DNA of 64,000 bases from Paraburkholderia gardini. GTDB lineage: Bacteria > Pseudomonadota > Gammaproteobacteria > Burkholderiales > Burkholderiaceae. The notes beneath the pieces are model-generated. The model was not told where the DNA came from, did no database searches, and saw only the letters and a program-made list of their open reading frames with translations. The position numbers were made by a program, and so were the translations under genes. Positions 48,979 to 57,144 of this stretch are shown here, piece after piece (the first letter of the stretch is position 1; the number at the start of each line of letters is the position of its first letter). The stretch covers positions 1 to 64,000 of the forward strand of contig NZ_CAJQYY010000028.1 in NCBI RefSeq assembly GCF_907164575.1, given 5' to 3'.

Positions 48979-49626
48979 TCAACGCCACGCGTCGATCCAG
49001 CGGACGACGAGCGGCGTCAGCACCAGTCCCCACGTCATCAGACACATCACGAGCGCGACCATCACGGCGGCGCTGCCGAGATCCTTCGCGCGGCGCGACA
49101 GTTCGTGGCGTTCGAGCGAGATGCGGTCGATGGCGGCTTCGACGCTCGAATTCAGCAGCTCGACGATCAGGACCAGCAACACGGAGCCGAGCAGCAGCAC
49201 GCGCGCGACCGGCTCGACCGGTACGATCAGGCCGATCGGCAGCAGGATCGCCGCCAGCGTCAGCTCCTGGCGAAACGCACTTTCCTCACGGATCGCAACC
49301 TGGAAACCGGCCAGCGAATTCTTCATCGCGTGCCATGCCCGCGTGAGCCCGCGATTGCCCTTGTACGGATTGAACGGCAAGGGCGCGAGCGGATCGTCGG
49401 GACTCAGCGGTTCGCTGGGTGTGCCGGCGTGCGTATCGGTTTCGTTTGTATCCGGATGTGGATCGTCGTCGAAAGGATCGCCGCCTGCGTTTCGCGCATC
49501 GGCGGCATCGGCAGTATCGGCGACGTGAGGACGCGCCGCGTCACGCGGCGCGCGAGGCGCGTCCGTGGACGGACGCCGGACAGAAGACGTTCTCGCCTGC
49601 ATGGTGGACTGTGCGCGCCGCGTCAT
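48979..49626 (-). CDS. dgkA: Diacylglycerol kinase (DgkA) with long N-terminal extension
   Basis: DgkA phosphorylates diacylglycerol to phosphatidic acid in the inner membrane. The C-terminal part has the family's three helices and the signature VELLNSSVEAAIDRISLERH, then ELSRRAKDLGSAAVMVAL. The total is 215 residues instead of about 122. The first 95 or so are disordered, rich in Ala, Asp, Pro and Thr (DPFDDDPHPDTNETD), and precede GLTRAWHAMKNS, where the family starts. The ATG at 49626 overlaps the stop of the upstream glycosyltransferase. A start at 49602 lacks a ribosome site. Confidence 0.88.
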   Translation of the reverse strand: MTRRAQSTMQARTSSVRRPSTDAPRAPRDAARPHVADTADAADARNAGGDPFDDDPHPDTNETDTHAGTPSEPLSPDDPLAPLPFNPYKGNRGLTRAWHAMKNSLAGFQVAIREESAFRQELTLAAILLPIGLIVPVEPVARVLLLGSVLLVLIVELLNSSVEAAIDRISLERHELSRRAKDLGSAAVMVALVMCLMTWGLVLTPLVVRWIDAWR

Positions 49627-50654
49627 GCGGCGGCGCTTTCCTCGCTGAACGACGGGCGCGGCAGCGGCTTCAGGTGCGCGGCGAACTGCTCCGATGCCGC
49701 ACCCCACGAAAAACGTTCCGCCCACGCGCGCGCATGGTTGCGATCGATCTTCAGCGCTTCGAGACACGCCTCGCGCAGGTCTTCGTTCATCGCGCCCGCG
49801 CCGCCGTCGCCGAGCACGTCGATCGGGCCGGTCACCGGGTACGCCGCGACCGGCGTGCCGCACGCGAGCGCTTCGAGCAGCACGAGACCGAACGTGTCGG
49901 TACGGCTCGGGAAGACGAATACGTCGGCGGCGGCGTAGACCTTCGCGAGTTCGGCCTGCGTCAGCACGCCGAGATAGTTCGCCGTCGGATAGCGCGACTT
50001 CAGTTCCGCGAGCGCGGGGCCTTCGCCCGCGACCCATTTCGAGCCCGGCAGATCGAGCTTCAGAAACGCCTCGACGTTTTTCTCGACCGCCACGCGCCCG
50101 ACATACAGAAAGATCGGCCGCGCGCTGTTGAGCACCTTCGAGTCCATCTGGTGAAAGATGTCGAGATCGACGCCACGCGTCCACAGCACGACGTTCGTGA
50201 AGCCGAATTTCTCGAGGTCGGTTTTTACCACGGGCGTCGGCGCCATCACGGCGAGCGACGGCTTGTGGAACCAGTGCAGGAACCTGTACGTGGCGGCGAG
50301 CGGCATGCCGAAGCGGGCCTGCACGTACTCGGGAAAACGCGTGTGATACGCGGTCGTGAACGGCAGCTTGTGCTGGATCGCATACGCGCGCGCCGCGAGA
50401 CCGAGCGGACCTTCGGTGGCGATATGCAGCGCGTCGGGCGCGAATTCGCCGATACGTCGACGCAGACGCTTTTTCGGCAGCAGCGACAGGCGGATCTCGG
50501 GATACGTCGGGCACGGGATCGTGTGGAATTCGAGCGGCGTCAGCAGGTCGACGCGATGACCGAGCGCGGTCAGCTCGCGCGTCGTGTTCTTCAGCGTGCG
50601 AACAACGCCGTTGACCTGCGGTTCCCATGCATCGGTGACGATCATGATCTTCAT
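49623..50654 (-). CDS. Glycosyltransferase family 4, lipid glycosyltransferase (Agt-like) candidate
   Basis: A 343-residue GT-B enzyme. Acceptor side: MKIMIVTDAWEPQVNGVVRT and FHTIPCPTYPEIRLSL. Donor side: IFLYVGRVAVEKNVEAFL, WVAGEGPALAEL and FVFPSRTDTFGLVLLEALA (EX7E-type). Such sequences (SqdX/PimB/MgtA group) add sugars to diacylglycerol or lipids. Its position between a PlcP-type phosphoesterase and DgkA suggests that it glycosylates diacylglycerol, as Agt does in phosphate-starved bacteria. It begins 69 bases after the phosphoesterase gene and overlaps dgkA. Confidence 0.8.
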   Translation of the reverse strand: MKIMIVTDAWEPQVNGVVRTLKNTTRELTALGHRVDLLTPLEFHTIPCPTYPEIRLSLLPKKRLRRRIGEFAPDALHIATEGPLGLAARAYAIQHKLPFTTAYHTRFPEYVQARFGMPLAATYRFLHWFHKPSLAVMAPTPVVKTDLEKFGFTNVVLWTRGVDLDIFHQMDSKVLNSARPIFLYVGRVAVEKNVEAFLKLDLPGSKWVAGEGPALAELKSRYPTANYLGVLTQAELAKVYAAADVFVFPSRTDTFGLVLLEALACGTPVAAYPVTGPIDVLGDGGAGAMNEDLREACLEALKIDRNHARAWAERFSWGAASEQFAAHLKPLPRPSFSEESAAA

Positions 50655-50723
50655 CGTTGTGACCCAGGTAAGGTGAAAAGGTAACGCGTGTCCAGCGGGT
50701 GTTGACGTGATGTGACAGGGGCT

Positions 50724-51668
50724 TTAAGCGGCGGTCGCCCGGGCCTTTTGCGCGCTCGCTTCCGGCGAGCGCATGACGGTCCAGTAAATCACCTTGAGTT
50801 CGCCTTCGAACGTCTCGACGAGCGCCGACAGACTCTCGACCCAGTCGCCGTCGTTGCAATACAGCACGCCGTCGATGTCGCGAATCTCGGCCTTGTGGAT
50901 GTGCCCGCAGACCACGCCATCGCAGCCGCGGCGGCGCGCTTCGTCGGTCATCACGCGTTCGAACGACGAGATGAAGTTCACCGCGTTTTTCACCTGATGC
51001 TTCAGGTATTGCGACAGCGACCAGTACTGGAAGCCGAGCCGGCTGCGGATCCGGTTGAACCAGCGGTTGAGCAGCAGGATCAGCGTGTAAGCCGAATCGC
51101 CGAGATAGGCGAGCCACTTCGCGTGCTGGATCACGCCGTCGAACAGATCGCCGTGCGTGATCCACAGGCGCTTGCCGGCAAGCGTCGTGTGAAATGCCTC
51201 GCCGCGCACGTGGATGTCGCCGAACGCGAGGTCGCAGAACTGGCGCGCGCCTTCGTCGTGATTGCCGGGCACGTAGACGACCTGGGTGCCCTTTCTCGCC
51301 TTGCGCAGGATCTTCTGCACAACGTCGTTGTGCGCCTGCGGCCAGTACCAGCCTTTCTTCAACTGCCAGCCGTCGATGATGTCGCCGACGAGATACAGGT
51401 ATTCCGATTCGTTGTGCCGCAGAAAATCCAGCAGGTACGGCGCCTGACAGCCGTTCGAACCCAGGTGGATATCCGAGAGCCAGATCGCGCGGTAGCGATG
51501 CGTCGCGTCGTGGTCGTCTTCGTGATGGCCCGTGCCCGTCATCGGTATCGACGGTGGCGGGGACAGGGGAATGGCATTGGCGGGAAGGGCGCCCGGTCCG
51601 AAAGCGACGGGGTCGACGCCGGGGCCGGTCTGGCGAAAGAGAGAAGTCGCGGACGTCTGGTTGTCCAT
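50724..51668 (-). CDS. Metallophosphoesterase of the PlcP/LpxH-like type
   Basis: A 314-residue calcineurin-like phosphoesterase, cytosolic. Metal and catalytic motifs are complete: SDIHLGSNG (DxH, about 66-68), VGDIIDGW (GD), VPGNHDEGA (GNHD), THGD and CGHIHKAE. The YbbF/LpxH fold is also marked by YWSLSQYLKHQVKNAVNFIS. The N-terminal 55 residues are unconserved. PlcP enzymes of this family hydrolyse phosphatidylcholine or phosphatidylethanolamine to diacylglycerol under phosphate limitation; LpxH acts on lipid A precursors. The gene order with a GT4 enzyme and DgkA favours the PlcP reading. Confidence 0.75.
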   Translation of the reverse strand: MDNQTSATSLFRQTGPGVDPVAFGPGALPANAIPLSPPPSIPMTGTGHHEDDHDATHRYRAIWLSDIHLGSNGCQAPYLLDFLRHNESEYLYLVGDIIDGWQLKKGWYWPQAHNDVVQKILRKARKGTQVVYVPGNHDEGARQFCDLAFGDIHVRGEAFHTTLAGKRLWITHGDLFDGVIQHAKWLAYLGDSAYTLILLLNRWFNRIRSRLGFQYWSLSQYLKHQVKNAVNFISSFERVMTDEARRRGCDGVVCGHIHKAEIRDIDGVLYCNDGDWVESLSALVETFEGELKVIYWTVMRSPEASAQKARATAA

Positions 51669-51712
51669 GGCTCACGCGTCGGGTTGCGGTACGTGCATTC
51701 GGCCATCGGCGT

Positions 51713-51730
51713 GTGTCGGTGCCGTGACAG
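51713..51730 (-). promoter_or_regulatory. Candidate PhoB-binding site (Pho box)
   Basis: On the minus strand CTGTCAC GGCA CCGACAC: against the consensus CTGTCAY-N4-CTGTCAY it scores 7/7 and 5/7, 12/14 in total. It lies 45 bases upstream of the phosphoesterase ATG at 51668. No clear -10 follows at the usual distance. Confidence 0.45.
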
Positions 51731-51888
51731 TCACGAGAAGTTCTTATTACGGCGATACGTGCTCGTGTGTGTATTCACGCGCGTATTCATGAATCCGCCG
51801 CTGGCTTTGCAGGCGCGCCGCTCCGGTTGTGCATTGCAGCGATAACGGACCGCGTCGGGAAAGCCCCAGGTGGGCTTGCCTTGAAGTC

Positions 51889-51922: not shown

Positions 51923-51954
51923 ATTCCCGTTTTTCCAGCAGGTTGACGGAATCC

Positions 51955-53019
51955 ATGGGTGAGGCCAACAGGTTGCTTCCAACACTGCGCGACGTTGCCA
52001 ATGCGGCCGAAGTTTCGGTCGGCACGGCATCGAAGGTGCTGTCCGGCGCGCCCGGCGTTTCCGCGGCGCGGGCGCAACGCGTGTGGGACGCGGCACGCCG
52101 GCTGGGTTATCGCCGCAACGGCATCGCCGCCGACCTGCGTCGCGGCCGGCCGAGTTCGATCGGTTTCGTGCTGCCGGACCTCACGAACCAGTTCTTCGTC
52201 GATATCGCGCGCGCGCTCGAAAACCACGCGCTCGAACACGGCTACCAGCTGATCATGGCGCACGCCGACGAAGACCCGGCGCGCGAAATGGAGCGCATCC
52301 GCTTTGTGATGTCGCGCCAGGTGGCGGGCATGATCATCATTCCGTGCCGCGGCTATGAACACGCGATCAAGGAAGCCCGCGAGTGCAACGTGCCGCTCGT
52401 GATGGCCGATCGCGTCGACGACACGTTTCCGGCGAATACCGTGACGACCGACAGCCACGGTGCGTCGCTCGACGGTACCGCTCATCTGGTCGCGCTGGGT
52501 CACAGGCGCATCGCGTTTCTCGTCAACACGCTCGATCTGGTGAATTCGAAGGAACGTGCGGACGGCTATATCGACGCGATGCGCCGCGCGGGGCTCGACA
52601 GCTTCATTCAGGTCGTCGAGTGCGGGATGACGGCCGCTGAAATCCACGCATCGACGCTCGACGTGCTGAGCGCGCCCGTGCGTCCAACGGCGCTCTTCGC
52701 CGCCGGCAATGTGACGACGCTCGGCGCATTGCGCGCGCTTCGGGACGCGAATCTGCGTCTGCCGGAAGACATTTCGCTGCTCTCGTTCGACGACGCGCCG
52801 TGGATGTCGGTGTTGCGCCCGTATCTGAGTTCGATCCGCCAGCCGGTCGAAGCGATCGGACACGCGATCTGGCAGCTGATGCTGAAGCTTCTGAACGGCG
52901 AGCGGGGCGAGCCCGCGCATCTGACATTCAAGGCTGAACTGCTGGTGCGCGAGAGCACCGCGCGTGTGCCGGAAGACGTGCCCACGTTGCATCACCAGCA
53001 GGCGACGGCGAGGCGCTGA
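51955..53019 (+). CDS. LacI-family transcriptional regulator
   Basis: A 354-residue sugar-responsive repressor. HTH: TLRDVANAAEVSVGTASKVL, then the hinge region LGYRRNGIAADLRRGRPSS; the periplasmic-binding-protein-like domain begins IGFVLPDLTNQFFVDIARAL and includes HLVALGHRRIAFL and LSFDDAPWMSVLRPYLSSI. It sits directly upstream of a three-gene sugar ABC importer and both promoters carry the same operator, so it is almost certainly its regulator. The ligand is unknown. The start is ATG at 51955; a TTG four codons earlier (51943) is less supported. Confidence 0.92.
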   Translation: MGEANRLLPTLRDVANAAEVSVGTASKVLSGAPGVSAARAQRVWDAARRLGYRRNGIAADLRRGRPSSIGFVLPDLTNQFFVDIARALENHALEHGYQLIMAHADEDPAREMERIRFVMSRQVAGMIIIPCRGYEHAIKEARECNVPLVMADRVDDTFPANTVTTDSHGASLDGTAHLVALGHRRIAFLVNTLDLVNSKERADGYIDAMRRAGLDSFIQVVECGMTAAEIHASTLDVLSAPVRPTALFAAGNVTTLGALRALRDANLRLPEDISLLSFDDAPWMSVLRPYLSSIRQPVEAIGHAIWQLMLKLLNGERGEPAHLTFKAELLVRESTARVPEDVPTLHHQQATARR

Positions 53020-53027
53020 AAGCGCAC

Positions 53028-53039
53028 TGGAACGTTTCA
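53028..53039. promoter_or_regulatory. LacI-family operator in front of the sugar ABC operon
   Basis: TGGAACGTTTCA differs in one base from the perfect palindrome upstream of the regulator (51911-51922). It lies in the 109-base gap before the binding-protein gene and is followed by a T-run (TTTTTT) at 53040. Confidence 0.7.
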
Positions 53040-53128
53040 TTTTTTACGCAGCAGGGCACAGGGACGAGAGAGAAGGAGAGGGGCACACAACCGCGCATCA
53101 CGTAATGCGCAAATTATGGAGACAGTCG

Positions 53129-54085
53129 ATGAACCGCAACCGTCGCTTGATCACTGGCGCACTTGTCACGGCACCGTTTGCCGGGCTCGTGATGAAGGCT
53201 GGATACGTGCAGGCCCAGGGCAAGAAATATCGCTTCGGGTTTTCGCAGGTGACCACGGTCGAACCGTGGCGCGTCCAGTTCAACAAGGACATGAAAGCCG
53301 AAGCCGCGAAACATCCGAACGTCGAACTCGTGATCGCCGACGCCAACGATCGCACCGACAAGCAGAACGCCGACATGGAGAACTTCATCGCACAGAAGAT
53401 GGACGTGATCTTCATCTCGCCGAAGGAGTCGGCCGGGCTCACGGGCGTGGTCGAAAAAGCGTACAAGGCGGGCATCCCGGTGTTCGTGCTCGACCGGACC
53501 GTGAACGGCGATGCGTACACGCAGTTCGTCGGCGGCGACAACACGCTGATCGGCAAGGGCATCGGCGAATTCATCGTCAAGACGACGGGCGGTCCGGGCG
53601 CGGCGAAAGGCAATATCGTCGAAGTGTGGGGCGGTTTTGGCGCGCAGGCTTCGCACGACCGGCACGACGGCGCGATGGCATTCATCGGCAAGGAGAAGGG
53701 GCTGAAGACCGTCGGCCAGCGCGTGGACTGCGACTGGAAGCAGGACAAGGCGTACGACTATATGAAGACGGTGCTGCGCGTGAATCCGCAGGTCGACGTG
53801 GTGTTCGCGCACAACGATCCGATGGCGTACGGCGCGTATCTCGCCGCGAAGGACGCGGGCGTCGAGAAGAAGATCAGGTTCGTCGGCGCGGACGGCTTGC
53901 CGAACGAAGGCGCCGTGTGGGTCGAGAAGGGCATTCTGACGGCGACGTTCGTGTACCCGACGCCGGGTGCCGAGGGCCTGCGTCAGGCGCTCAGGATGCT
54001 TGCCGGCGAGAAGATTCCGAAGAAGGTGATCCTGCCGACGCAGGGCATTTTCGCGGACAACGCGAAGCAGTTCGTGGCCGGCTGA
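53129..54085 (+). CDS. Sugar ABC transporter periplasmic substrate-binding protein
   Basis: A 318-residue type I (RbsB/YtfQ-like) binding protein. The signal peptide is short (RRLITGALVTAPFAGLVM, cleavage near VQAQ|GKKY). The mature domain shows YRFGFSQVTTVEPWRVQFN and IADANDRTDKQNADMENFI, and sugar-contact motifs FVLDRTVNGDAY and FAHNDPMAYGAYLAAKDAG. It delivers a monosaccharide, probably an aldose, to the two following gene products. The substrate is not identifiable. The start at 53129 has GGAGA before it; an ATG at 53105 lies inside a hairpin. Confidence 0.9.
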   Translation: MNRNRRLITGALVTAPFAGLVMKAGYVQAQGKKYRFGFSQVTTVEPWRVQFNKDMKAEAAKHPNVELVIADANDRTDKQNADMENFIAQKMDVIFISPKESAGLTGVVEKAYKAGIPVFVLDRTVNGDAYTQFVGGDNTLIGKGIGEFIVKTTGGPGAAKGNIVEVWGGFGAQASHDRHDGAMAFIGKEKGLKTVGQRVDCDWKQDKAYDYMKTVLRVNPQVDVVFAHNDPMAYGAYLAAKDAGVEKKIRFVGADGLPNEGAVWVEKGILTATFVYPTPGAEGLRQALRMLAGEKIPKKVILPTQGIFADNAKQFVAG

Positions 54086-54125
54086 GGTTGATGCAGGCAC
54101 AAGCCGTGCGTGCCGCGGTCCTCGC

Positions 54126-55772
54126 ATGATCGGACTGCGCACGCTTCGCAACGCTGACCCGACTCAACCGACGAGGCGAACGGCTTTCATGATGCAACAC
54201 GCAGCAGGCGGTCACACCACGCGCGAAGCGCAACGCTCCACGCCGCCACTTTCGCACGAAGGTGCGGCGGTGCCGCTCGTCGCGGCATCACGCATTTCGA
54301 TTGCGTTCAGCGGCAGCGCGGCGCTCACCGACATCGACTTCGATATCGCTGCGGGCGAGGTGCATGCGCTCGTCGGCGAAAACGGCGCGGGCAAGTCGAG
54401 CCTGATGAAGATTCTCGGCGGCCTGTATCTGCCGGACGCGGGCACGATCGCCGTCGCGGGCACACCCGTCGCGTTCAGAACCAGCGCCGATGCGATGGAC
54501 GCCGGCATCGCGATCATTCATCAGGAACTGAATCTGGTCGACAGTCTTTCTGTCGTCGACAACCTTTTTCTCGGCAAGGAAATCACCACGCGCTTCGGTT
54601 TTCCCAACCATGCCGCGATGCGTGCGAAAGCGCGTGAAGTGCTGGCGCAACTCGGCTTCAGGCCCGCGCCTGATGCGCTCGTGGGGCCGCTGCGCATCGG
54701 CGAAAAGCAGCTGATCGAAATCGCGAAGGCGCTGCTCGCCGACGCGCGCGTGCTGATCATGGACGAGCCGACGTCCGCGCTCTCCGACACCGAAACGCAG
54801 GCGCTGTCCGTTCTCGTGCGCGAACTGCGCGAGCGCGGCATGGGCATCGTCCTGATCAGCCATCGTCTGCAGGAGGTCTTCGATCTTGCCGATCGCGTCA
54901 CCGTGCTGCGCGACGGCCGGCATATCGCGACGCTGCCGATCGGCCGCGTCGAATCCGCCGAACAGCTCGTCTCGATGATGATCGGCAAGAACTTCGTCAC
55001 GCCGCATCGCGAGGCGGGCGAACTGCGCGCCGCCGCCGACACGATGATCGCCGTGCGCGATCTGACGCTGCACGGCGATCATCGTCCGGTTGTCGATCAC
55101 GTGTCGTTCGAGGTGCGGCAGGGCGAAGTGTTCGGTCTGTCGGGACTGCTCGGCGCGGGCAAGACGGAGATTCTGGAAACGCTCTTCGGCGTGTCGTCGT
55201 ATCGCGTGGAAGGCGCAATCGAAATCGGCCCTTCGCGGCGTGCGTTCACGACGCCCGCGGCCGCAGTCGAAGCCGGCGTCGCGTTTGTCACCGAAGACCG
55301 CAAGAAAGACGGCCTCTTGCCCGAGCATTCGGTGGAAGCGAACTTCGTGCTGCCGAGCCTTGCGCGTGTCGACGGCTTTCCGTTCTACCGGCGCCGTGCG
55401 ATCGCACGGCGCGTGACAGCACAGGCGAAGGCGTCGAACGTGAAATGCGGCGGCGTCGCGCAGACCGTCACGACGCTCTCGGGCGGCAACCAGCAGAAGC
55501 TCATCATCGGCAAATGGCTGATGACGCAGCCCGATATCCTGCTGCTCGACGAGCCCACGCGCGGCGTCGACGTGGCCGCCAAATCGGAAATCTACAGCCA
55601 GATCCTGCAGGCGGCGCGCGCCGGCCTGACGGTCGTCGTCGCGAGCTCGGAGATCGACGAGCTGATGCTGATGTGCGACCGCATTCTCGTGCTGTGTGAA
55701 GGACGCGCGGCCGGCGTGCTGGAGCGCGAGGCGTTTTCCGCCGGACAGCTCGTGAAGCTGGCCTCGCCTTGA
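54126..55772 (+). CDS. Sugar ABC transporter ATPase, tandem domains (RbsA-like)
   Basis: A 548-residue importer ATPase with two nucleotide-binding domains. Domain 1: Walker A GENGAGKSS, Q-loop IIHQELN, Walker B LIMDEPTSAL. Its signature is degenerate (LRIGEKQLIEIAKAL). Domain 2: Walker A-like GLLGAGKTEIL, signature LSGGNQQKL, Walker B LLLDEPTRGVD. Two degenerate sites are common in this family. The N-terminus is uncertain: ATG 54126 has no ribosome site and MMQHAAGG at 54189 is an alternative. It follows the binding-protein gene by 40 bases. Confidence 0.9.
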   Translation: MIGLRTLRNADPTQPTRRTAFMMQHAAGGHTTREAQRSTPPLSHEGAAVPLVAASRISIAFSGSAALTDIDFDIAAGEVHALVGENGAGKSSLMKILGGLYLPDAGTIAVAGTPVAFRTSADAMDAGIAIIHQELNLVDSLSVVDNLFLGKEITTRFGFPNHAAMRAKAREVLAQLGFRPAPDALVGPLRIGEKQLIEIAKALLADARVLIMDEPTSALSDTETQALSVLVRELRERGMGIVLISHRLQEVFDLADRVTVLRDGRHIATLPIGRVESAEQLVSMMIGKNFVTPHREAGELRAAADTMIAVRDLTLHGDHRPVVDHVSFEVRQGEVFGLSGLLGAGKTEILETLFGVSSYRVEGAIEIGPSRRAFTTPAAAVEAGVAFVTEDRKKDGLLPEHSVEANFVLPSLARVDGFPFYRRRAIARRVTAQAKASNVKCGGVAQTVTTLSGGNQQKLIIGKWLMTQPDILLLDEPTRGVDVAAKSEIYSQILQAARAGLTVVVASSEIDELMLMCDRILVLCEGRAAGVLEREAFSAGQLVKLASP

Positions 55773-55791
55773 TCGACCGGAGACAGAGAAC

Positions 55792-57144
55792 ATGCTGAAA
55801 GCGAATGAACCGGCCCATAAGTCGACCCATGAGCCGGCCCTCGATACGCTGCCCGACCCGCGGCAACGACGCCTGCGGGCGTGGCTGACGAACGTCAAAT
55901 ACTACCTGGGGCTGATCGTACTGATCGCGCTCGGTGCGCTGACCTCGCCGCATGCCGCGGACGGCAGCAATATCTTTCTGTCGGCGGCGAATTTCTCGGA
56001 CGTGTTCCGTCAGGTCGCGAACGTCGGTGTGATGTCGGTCGGCATGACGCTCGTGATCATCACCGCCGGGATCGATCTGTCGGTCGGCTCGGTGATGGGC
56101 TTCGGCAGCGTGCTGACCGCGATCCTGCTGACGACGCCCGGCTCGAACACCGCGTCATGGACGGCGCTCGGGCTCGACGCGGTGAGCATCTTCATCATCG
56201 TCTGCGGGGTGGGCGGTTTGCTGGCGCGGCGCAAGCGTGCGAAAGGCGCTTCGGGTGTTCATGTGCGGCGCCACGGCCCGCGTATGGCGGTTGGGTTCGT
56301 CTGCGCGCTGCTTGCGTGTGCGTACGCATGGCATCAGTTGCCGGTCAAGGTTTCGCTGTGGACGGTCTTGTGGATGGTGCCGCTCGCGGGCCTTGCAATC
56401 GGCGCGCTGAACGGCTGGATCATCACGCGTGGCAGGATGCAGCCGTTCATCGTGACGCTGGCCGCGATGGTCGGCGTGATGGGCGTGGCGCGTCTCGTGG
56501 CGGGGCAGGACACGGCCGTCTACTCGATCTACAGCGGCAGCAATGCGACCACGGACATTGAACTCCTGCGCGCGCTGCTGTTCGGCGTGGTGCCGGTGCC
56601 CACACTCTTTTTCGTCGTGATCGCGCTAATCGCGGATTTCGTGCTGAACCGGACCGTGTTCGGCAAGTACCTGTACGCGATCGGCGGCAACGAGAAATGC
56701 GCGCGCATTTCCGGCCTCAAGGTCGATCGCAACAAGATCGCCGCGTACGCGATCTCCGGGATGCTGTCGGCGCTCGTCGGCGTGCTGTACGCGGCGCAAT
56801 ACCGGCAGGGCAAGGCGGACGCGGGCGTCGGCTGGGAGCTCGACGCGATCGCCGCGGTGGTGATCGGCGGCACGAGCCTGATGGGCGGCGTGGGACGGAT
56901 TGCGGGAACGGTAGCCGGCGTGCTGATCTTCGGCTTTCTCGGCAACATCCTGCTGCTCAACAACATCGACAGCAACACGCAGCTCGTGATGAAAGGGCTG
57001 ATCATCGTGGTCGCCGTGTTCCTGCAGCAGACGCGCATGGATCCGCGGACGATGTTCGCGCGCCTCGGCGGTCGCAAGGGCGTGACGACGTCGCCGGCGC
57101 AGCGGCAGGCGTCGTCGTCAGGAAGCGCGGCGGAGAAGCGTTGA
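55792..57144 (+). CDS. Sugar ABC transporter permease (RbsC/XylH-like), large
   Basis: A 450-residue permease with about ten membrane helices. Conserved cores: SVGMTLVIITAGIDLSVGSV and FIVTLAAMVGVMGVARLV, plus YAIGGNEKCARISGLKVDR and VIGGTSLMGGVGRIAGTVAG, typical of the branched-chain sugar permease group. It is longer than RbsC (321), mainly through an extra membrane segment in the middle (RRKRAKGASGVHVRRHGPRM, then VGFVCALLACAYAW) and a Ser/Gln-rich C-terminus. It starts 20 bases after the ATPase gene. Confidence 0.9.
   Translation: MLKANEPAHKSTHEPALDTLPDPRQRRLRAWLTNVKYYLGLIVLIALGALTSPHAADGSNIFLSAANFSDVFRQVANVGVMSVGMTLVIITAGIDLSVGSVMGFGSVLTAILLTTPGSNTASWTALGLDAVSIFIIVCGVGGLLARRKRAKGASGVHVRRHGPRMAVGFVCALLACAYAWHQLPVKVSLWTVLWMVPLAGLAIGALNGWIITRGRMQPFIVTLAAMVGVMGVARLVAGQDTAVYSIYSGSNATTDIELLRALLFGVVPVPTLFFVVIALIADFVLNRTVFGKYLYAIGGNEKCARISGLKVDRNKIAAYAISGMLSALVGVLYAAQYRQGKADAGVGWELDAIAAVVIGGTSLMGGVGRIAGTVAGVLIFGFLGNILLLNNIDSNTQLVMKGLIIVVAVFLQQTRMDPRTMFARLGGRKGVTTSPAQRQASSSGSAAEKR

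What the first reader, a model, noticed from the sequence alone, without database searches (positions are those of the whole stretch)
48979..51730. Putative phosphate-starvation lipid-remodelling operon: PlcP-like phosphoesterase, GT4 enzyme, DgkA, with a Pho box
Seen: three co-directional genes (69-base gap, then a 4-base overlap) and a 12/14 Pho-box match 45 bases upstream of the first. Known: PlcP metallophosphoesterases of this fold turn phospholipids into diacylglycerol, Agt-type GT4 enzymes glycosylate it, and DgkA returns diacylglycerol to phosphatidic acid. Inference: the operon swaps phospholipid for glycolipid when phosphate is scarce and includes its own recycling branch through DgkA. 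A fused reading of the three activities in Burkholderia has not, to my knowledge, been described.
Basis: partly seen in the sequence, partly recalled or inferred. Interest (0 to 1): 0.8.

Follow-up and report, generated by a model that had tools for sequence, protein, structure and literature searches.

The report
Phosphate-starvation lipid-swap operon with DgkA
Three neighbouring genes in a Paraburkholderia-like soil bacterium probably let it replace phosphate-containing membrane lipids with sugar lipids when phosphate runs out, a known bacterial strategy, here with a lipid-recycling kinase built into the same operon across the Burkholderia family.

Summary
Three minus-strand genes lie as described: metallophosphoesterase, GT4 glycosyltransferase and DgkA, with a 69-base gap, a 4-base overlap and a 12/14 Pho-box match. 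The phosphoesterase is PlcP-type, not LpxH. It is about 52-54% identical over its catalytic core to PlcP of Sinorhizobium meliloti and Pseudomonas aeruginosa, it separates from 21 LpxH sequences with full support, and the genome has its own true LpxH elsewhere. The glycosyltransferase is 50.6% identical end to end to P. aeruginosa Agt1, which makes glucosyl-diacylglycerol. The DgkA core matches E. coli DgkA structures and is the only such gene in the genome. The Pho box alone is no better than chance (0.84 expected in the window). However, 46 of 47 Burkholderia sensu lato upstream regions hold such a box, nearly always at the same place, as do most Cupriavidus and Ralstonia. The plcP-agt pair under a Pho box is well known. 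The addition is that dgkA is the third gene, often overlapping the agt stop codon, throughout the Burkholderia family; I found no paper describing that. Lipid exchange is well supported by homology. DgkA as a diacylglycerol overflow or recycling branch is inference. New variant of a known kind, moderate interest.

The parts
51713..51730 (-). Pho box CTGTCACGGCACCGACAC (12/14)
   Evidence: conserved at the same spacing in Burkholderia s.l.; the second half is degenerate in this species and its sister
51742..51750 (-). conserved GTAATAAGA block just upstream of the Pho box, role unknown (possibly an outer PhoB contact or UP-like element)
   Evidence: 1.00 at most columns among 46 upstream regions
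51695..51704 (-). conserved GGCcgAATGC block, position fits a -10 region just after the Pho box
   Evidence: mostly 0.96-1.00; promoter assignment is inference
50724..51668 (-). plcP-type metallophosphoesterase (314 aa); core residues 58-309; about 57-residue variable N-terminus
   Evidence: 54.2% identity to P. aeruginosa PlcP and 51.6% to S. meliloti PlcP; separate from LpxH; all metal-binding motifs present
49623..50654 (-). agt-type GT4 diacylglycerol glycosyltransferase (343 aa)
   Evidence: Glyco_transf_4 plus Glycos_transf_1; 50.6% identity over 346 columns to P. aeruginosa Agt1 (PA3218)
48979..49626 (-). dgkA diacylglycerol kinase (215 aa; core 91-203; variable N-terminal 85-90 residues)
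   Evidence: DAGK_prokar 109 bits; aligns to E. coli DgkA structures (3ze3); only copy in the genome
49623..49626 (-). ATGA stop/start overlap of agt and dgkA
   Evidence: ATGA or GTGA, and at the same position TTGA in Burkholderia s.s.; conserved in many relatives

Best explanation
A PhoB-controlled membrane-lipid remodelling operon. When phosphate is scarce, PhoB binds the Pho box and switches on plcP-agt-dgkA. PlcP cleaves the phosphorylated head group from membrane phospholipids, releasing diacylglycerol (DAG). Agt glycosylates DAG with UDP-glucose and/or UDP-glucuronate to give phosphate-free glycolipid. DgkA, whose start overlaps the agt stop so that output is probably coupled, converts DAG that is not glycosylated back to phosphatidic acid. 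It thus acts as an overflow and re-entry valve that keeps non-bilayer DAG low and lets the membrane revert when phosphate returns. Shown here: gene content, order, orthology, separation from LpxH, conserved Pho box, PhoB and a Pho-boxed pstS in the genome, single-copy DgkA. Inferred: enzyme activities, sugar identity, PhoB binding, co-transcription, and the role of DgkA. The confidence given is for the Pho-controlled PlcP-Agt lipid exchange; I put the specific DgkA valve at about 0.45.
For: PlcP versus LpxH: the window protein scores only 26-31 bits on the LpxH model (cut-off 190), while a true LpxH of 223 bits lies on another contig. The PlcP and LpxH groups split with 100 support. PlcP-wide residues differ from LpxH at fixed positions (GNHD against GNRD, CGHIH against HGHTH) while the metal ligands are shared. 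Anchors: P. aeruginosa PlcP and Agt1 in their PA3219-PA3218-CyaB block and the S. meliloti homologue beside AHL synthase and LuxR genes, 54.2%, 50.6% and 51.6% identical. P. aeruginosa Agt1 makes monoglucosyl-DAG, and PlcP is induced by low phosphate (PMC8528852). Pho box; PhoB 348 bits, over cut-off; own pstS has the same kind of tandem boxes. DgkA: only copy, core like E. coli DgkA, order plcP-agt-dgkA in at least 65 of 106 loci, stop/start overlap conserved in many.
Against: No expression or lipid data. The box in this very species has lost a T kept by about 44 of 46 relatives, so induction could be weaker here. dgkA occurs in 153 of 200 Burkholderiales genomes against 49 with this agt, so DgkA also has duties without plcP-agt. 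Re-phosphorylating DAG spends phosphate, which sits oddly with a phosphate-saving operon. The sugar donor cannot be read from sequence.
Confidence: 0.8

Rival explanations
1. PlcP-Agt remodelling is right, but DgkA is a general housekeeping enzyme whose place in the operon gives basal co-expression; it has no special role in phosphate starvation.
For: Single DgkA copy in the genome; DgkA is far more widespread than plcP-agt in Burkholderiales; many relatives carry plcP-agt without adjacent dgkA.
Against: Adjacency is kept across Paraburkholderia, Burkholderia, Caballeronia, Trinickia, Cupriavidus, Ralstonia and several Polynucleobacter, with overlapping start codons in many Burkholderia s.l.; EptA-type DAG-releasing transferases are absent from this genome; DagK is phosphate-responsive in P. 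putida (PMC5082522).
Confidence: 0.35
2. The glycosyltransferase uses DAG but makes glucuronosyl- or other hexosyl-DAG, or also adds a second sugar, so the end lipid is not only monoglucosyl-DAG.
For: Agt-family enzymes can be promiscuous; a SAR11 Agt makes both MGDG and GADG (PMC4796936), and P. aeruginosa divides this between Agt1 and Agt2 (PMC8528852). No second close Agt paralogue was found in this genome (next best match 32% identity over 111 residues).
Against: The closest tested enzyme I could compare, Agt1, makes only MGDG in E. coli; at 50.6% identity, transfer of donor specificity is weak either way.
Confidence: 0.4
3. The phosphoesterase is an LpxH-like UDP-diacylglucosamine pyrophosphohydrolase and the operon belongs to lipid A synthesis.
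For: Automatic annotation calls such proteins UDP-2,3-diacylglucosamine diphosphatase; same superfamily.
Against:: fails the LpxH cut-off, separate clade, only 22% identity over 117 residues to the genome's own LpxH.
Confidence: 0.02
4. The Pho box is a chance match and the operon is constitutive or otherwise regulated.
For: Alone it is expected 0.84 times in the window; the second half is degenerate in this species.
Against: Conserved at nearly the same place in 46 of 47 relatives, and differently placed boxes precede plcP in other genera; the pstS control has similar boxes. The relatives are not statistically independent, but the core stays fixed where the flank has diverged.
Confidence: 0.05

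Closest known systems
PlcP-Agt1 operon of Pseudomonas aeruginosa (PA3219-PA3218)
   Same: PlcP-type enzyme followed by a GT4 Agt, Pho box upstream; 54.2% and 50.6% identity; phosphate-induced glycolipid (PMC8528852)
   Different: Two-gene operon followed by a convergent cyaB; no dgkA next to it
PlcP of Sinorhizobium meliloti (SMc00171-type)
   Same: 51.6% identity over 256 residues
   Different: No agt or dgkA neighbour in the region read
plcP-agt gene clusters of marine bacteria and methanotrophs
   Same: plcP immediately upstream of agt, DAG glycosylation, Pho boxes in the marine clusters (PMC4796936, PMC9239053)
   Different: The term 'diacylglycerol kinase' does not occur in the main text of either paper
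Pho-dependent DagK in Pseudomonas putida BIRD-1
   Same: Diacylglycerol kinase grouped with PlcP in the low-phosphate response (PMC5082522)
   Different: Pseudomonas; no operon link to plcP-agt described in the passages read
mcr-3-dgkA gene pair
   Same: dgkA linked to a gene whose product should release DAG (PMC7559476; the DAG point is my own knowledge)
   Different: Colistin-resistance gene context, not phosphate starvation

Membership tests
PlcP phospholipase C | Calcineurin-like metallophosphoesterase with intact metal ligands | tested here: met
   Metallophos and Metallophos_2 above cut-off; D66, H68, D96, N136, H172, H256 and H258 conserved in all 47 PlcP rows
PlcP phospholipase C | Groups with characterised PlcP and apart from LpxH | tested here: met
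   split with 100 SH-aLRT support; 54.2% and 51.6% identity to P. aeruginosa and S. meliloti PlcP
PlcP phospholipase C | Hydrolyses phospholipids to diacylglycerol, needed for remodelling | not testable with these tools
   needs enzyme assay or lipid profile of a deletion
LpxH | Passes LpxH model cut-off (TIGR01854, 190.35 bits) | tested here: not met
   31.0 and 26.5 bits; a different gene in the genome scores 223.4
Agt diacylglycerol glycosyltransferase | GT4 domains and full-length similarity to a tested Agt | tested here: met
   50.6% identity over 346 columns to P. aeruginosa Agt1
Agt diacylglycerol glycosyltransferase | Transfers glucose or glucuronate to diacylglycerol | not testable with these tools
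   needs heterologous expression and LC-MS
Prokaryotic diacylglycerol kinase DgkA | DAGK_prokar domain with the E. coli catalytic segment | tested here: met
   109 bits (cut-off 22.3); ELLNSSVEAAIDRI...HELSRRAKDLGSAAV aligns to 3ze3
PhoB regulon | Conserved Pho box upstream and PhoB in the genome | tested here: met
PhoB regulon | PhoB-dependent induction in low phosphate | not testable with these tools
   needs expression or binding data
Operon plcP-agt-dgkA | Co-directional, tight or overlapping genes kept across species | tested here: met
   the co-transcript itself was not tested

The most novel reading that the evidence does not exclude
In Burkholderiaceae, dgkA has been captured as a translationally coupled member of the phosphate-starvation operon and serves as a dosage-matched diacylglycerol valve: it sets how much PlcP-released DAG becomes glycolipid and how much returns to phospholipid, a control point not described for PlcP-Agt remodelling in the papers I could read.
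Probability: 0.45. Interest if true: 0.5.

Novelty: new variant of a known kind. Interest (0 to 1): 0.38.

Why it matters
It predicts phosphate-free glycolipids in Burkholderia, Paraburkholderia, Cupriavidus and Ralstonia; the Burkholderia lipid paper I read discusses ornithine lipids as the phosphorus-free substitute and does not mention PlcP (PMC7814305). It also makes a simple open question testable: what bacteria do with the diacylglycerol made when they dismantle phospholipids. It would correct a common database annotation (UDP-2,3-diacylglucosamine diphosphatase) for this gene.

Tried and rejected
LpxH identity (rejected). Pho box as significant on its own (rejected; accepted only through conservation). 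The B. cenocepacia phosphorus-stress proteome (Shropshire 2021, doi 10.1111/1462-2920.15451) could not be read, so whether this operon was already seen induced there is unknown to me. PDB sequence search gave no relative of the phosphoesterase and only distant GT4 matches. Sigma-70 and terminator scans were uninformative. The first look at the pstS promoter was on the wrong strand and was redone. The strict adjacency script missed overlapping pairs such as the window itself, so 65 of 106 is a lower bound. Structure prediction was not run: it would not separate PlcP from LpxH function better than the tree.

Full report
Observation. The three minus-strand ORFs, the 69-base gap, the 4-base ATGA overlap and the box at 51730-51713 are all present as described. 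The window lies on contig 28 of a 5.83 Mb, 76-contig genome; the closest named relatives of the phosphoesterase are Paraburkholderia. The box matches CTGTCAY-N4-CTGTCAY at 12 of 14 positions. On its own that is not remarkable: 0.84 such sites are expected in a shuffled window.

Pho box by conservation. In 46 aligned upstream regions of Paraburkholderia, Burkholderia, Caballeronia and Trinickia, the first half-site core TGTCA is invariant and GTCA of the second half is 96-100% conserved, while the sequence upstream of the conserved promoter block has diverged to about 0.4. 46 of 47 distinct regions reach 12 or more of 14 (0.23 expected from shuffles). Outside this group 20 of 54 reach 12 (0.12 expected), with Cupriavidus/Ralstonia 7 of 8, at other distances and often as tandem 11-base repeats. 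The sequences are related, so these figures are not probabilities. The genome has one PhoB over the curated cut-off, and its pstS promoter carries the same kind of tandem boxes (ACGTCACGTTACTGTCAT). A caveat for this genome: its second half-site, CCGACAC, has lost a T that, by the printed sites and column counts, only it and its 98%-identical sister lack.

Phosphoesterase. Pfam sees only a calcineurin-like phosphoesterase. The LpxH model gives 26-31 bits against a cut-off of 190, whereas a separate gene in the same genome scores 223. Anchors came from the plasmid collection: the P. aeruginosa PlcP-Agt1-CyaB block, which is the PA3219-PA3218-PA3217 arrangement, and an S. meliloti homologue beside an acyl-homoserine-lactone synthase and a LuxR regulator. 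I identify these with the characterised PlcP proteins by neighbourhood, from my own knowledge of those loci. Identities are 54.2% and 51.6% over the core. In a tree of 47 PlcP-type and 21 LpxH sequences the two groups separate with 100 support (a quick tree with some long LpxH branches, but the split is unambiguous). Metal ligands are shared, and fixed group differences (GNHD/GNRD, CGHIH/HGHTH) put the window protein with PlcP.

Glycosyltransferase. GT4 domains and 50.6% identity over 346 columns to P. aeruginosa Agt1, which makes monoglucosyl-diacylglycerol when expressed in E. coli (PMC8528852). The next most similar protein in the genome is only 32% identical over 111 residues, so this looks like a one-Agt genome. 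The donor sugar cannot be assigned.

DgkA. The core (91-203) aligns without gaps to E. coli DgkA crystal-structure sequences, catalytic segment included; it is the only DAGK_prokar gene in the genome. The first 85-90 residues are variable: the distance from the agt stop to the core ranges from below 20 to 489 bases. Nevertheless the start overlaps the agt stop (ATGA or GTGA) in many Paraburkholderia, Caballeronia and Trinickia. In Burkholderia s.s. the same position reads TTTGA, i.e. a possible TTG start in the same overlap (my reading of the printed sequence, since TTG starts were not listed by the script).

Distribution. plcP-agt-dgkA occurs in at least 65 of 106 loci, in Paraburkholderia, Burkholderia, Caballeronia, Trinickia, Cupriavidus, Ralstonia, some Polynucleobacter, Verticiella and others; about 30 further loci have plcP-agt without a detected dgkA, several on truncated contigs. 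In an even sample of 200 genomes of the order, 49 have the agt and 153 a DgkA. Comparing the printed coordinates by eye, the two genes are adjacent in at least 11 of the 49, including all five agt-positive members of the window's own family. So DgkA has a wider life than this operon, and its inclusion is a lineage feature.

Mechanism. The best reading is PhoB-driven PlcP cleavage of phospholipid to DAG, glycosylation by Agt, and DgkA as the branch that returns unglycosylated DAG to phosphatidic acid. The first two steps rest on close homology to tested enzymes; the third is inference. The main rival is that DgkA is simply a housekeeping enzyme riding in the operon. Against a purely incidental role: the adjacency and overlap are conserved, this genome has no EptA-type transferase that would make DAG otherwise (other DAG sources such as OpgB were not tested), and DagK responds to phosphate in P. 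putida (PMC5082522).

Known versus new. plcP-agt operons are established in Pseudomonas, marine bacteria and methanotrophs, with Pho boxes reported for the first two (PMC8528852, PMC4796936, PMC9239053). For Burkholderia s.l., a paper on ornithine lipids predicts Pho boxes before olsB and reports phospholipid replacement by ornithine lipids in low phosphate, with no mention of PlcP (PMC7814305). I found no description of dgkA as part of the operon, but the B. cenocepacia phosphorus-stress proteome was not available to me, and subscription literature is largely outside the library. The finding is a solid but modest variant of a known system.

Noticed in passing
window 51742-51750 and 51695-51704: Two further blocks (GTAATAAGA upstream and GGC..AATGC downstream of the Pho box) are about as conserved as the box itself in 46 Burkholderia s.l. 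promoters; the second fits a -10 region, the first is unexplained.
   Followed up: partly
window 51713-51719: The second Pho half-site has a T-to-A change shared only with its closest sister (L040), at a position kept by about 44 of 46 relatives.
   Followed up: partly
window 49357-49626 (DgkA N-terminus): The 85-90 residues before the DgkA core are hypervariable in sequence and length among close relatives, while the start overlap with agt is often kept.
   Followed up: partly
L180, L181 (CP075839.1, NZ_CP137508.1): Records filed as P. aeruginosa plasmids contain the chromosomal-type PlcP-Agt1-CyaB block, so they seem to carry chromosomal DNA.
   Followed up: no
L179 (CP090106.1): The S. meliloti record named pSymB is 3.7 Mb and carries an AHL synthase/LuxR pair next to plcP, so it looks like the chromosome under a wrong label.
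   Followed up: no
L122 (CAMDGF010000010.1): A contig titled Klebsiella pneumoniae MAG has the same length (48950) as a Burkholderiales contig (G019:C10) and a Burkholderiales-type plcP-agt pair; the title is probably wrong.
   Followed up: no
window 51943-57144, + strand: Divergent from the operon lies a LacI-type regulator gene followed by what looks like a sugar ABC transporter (binding protein, ATPase, permease).
   Followed up: no
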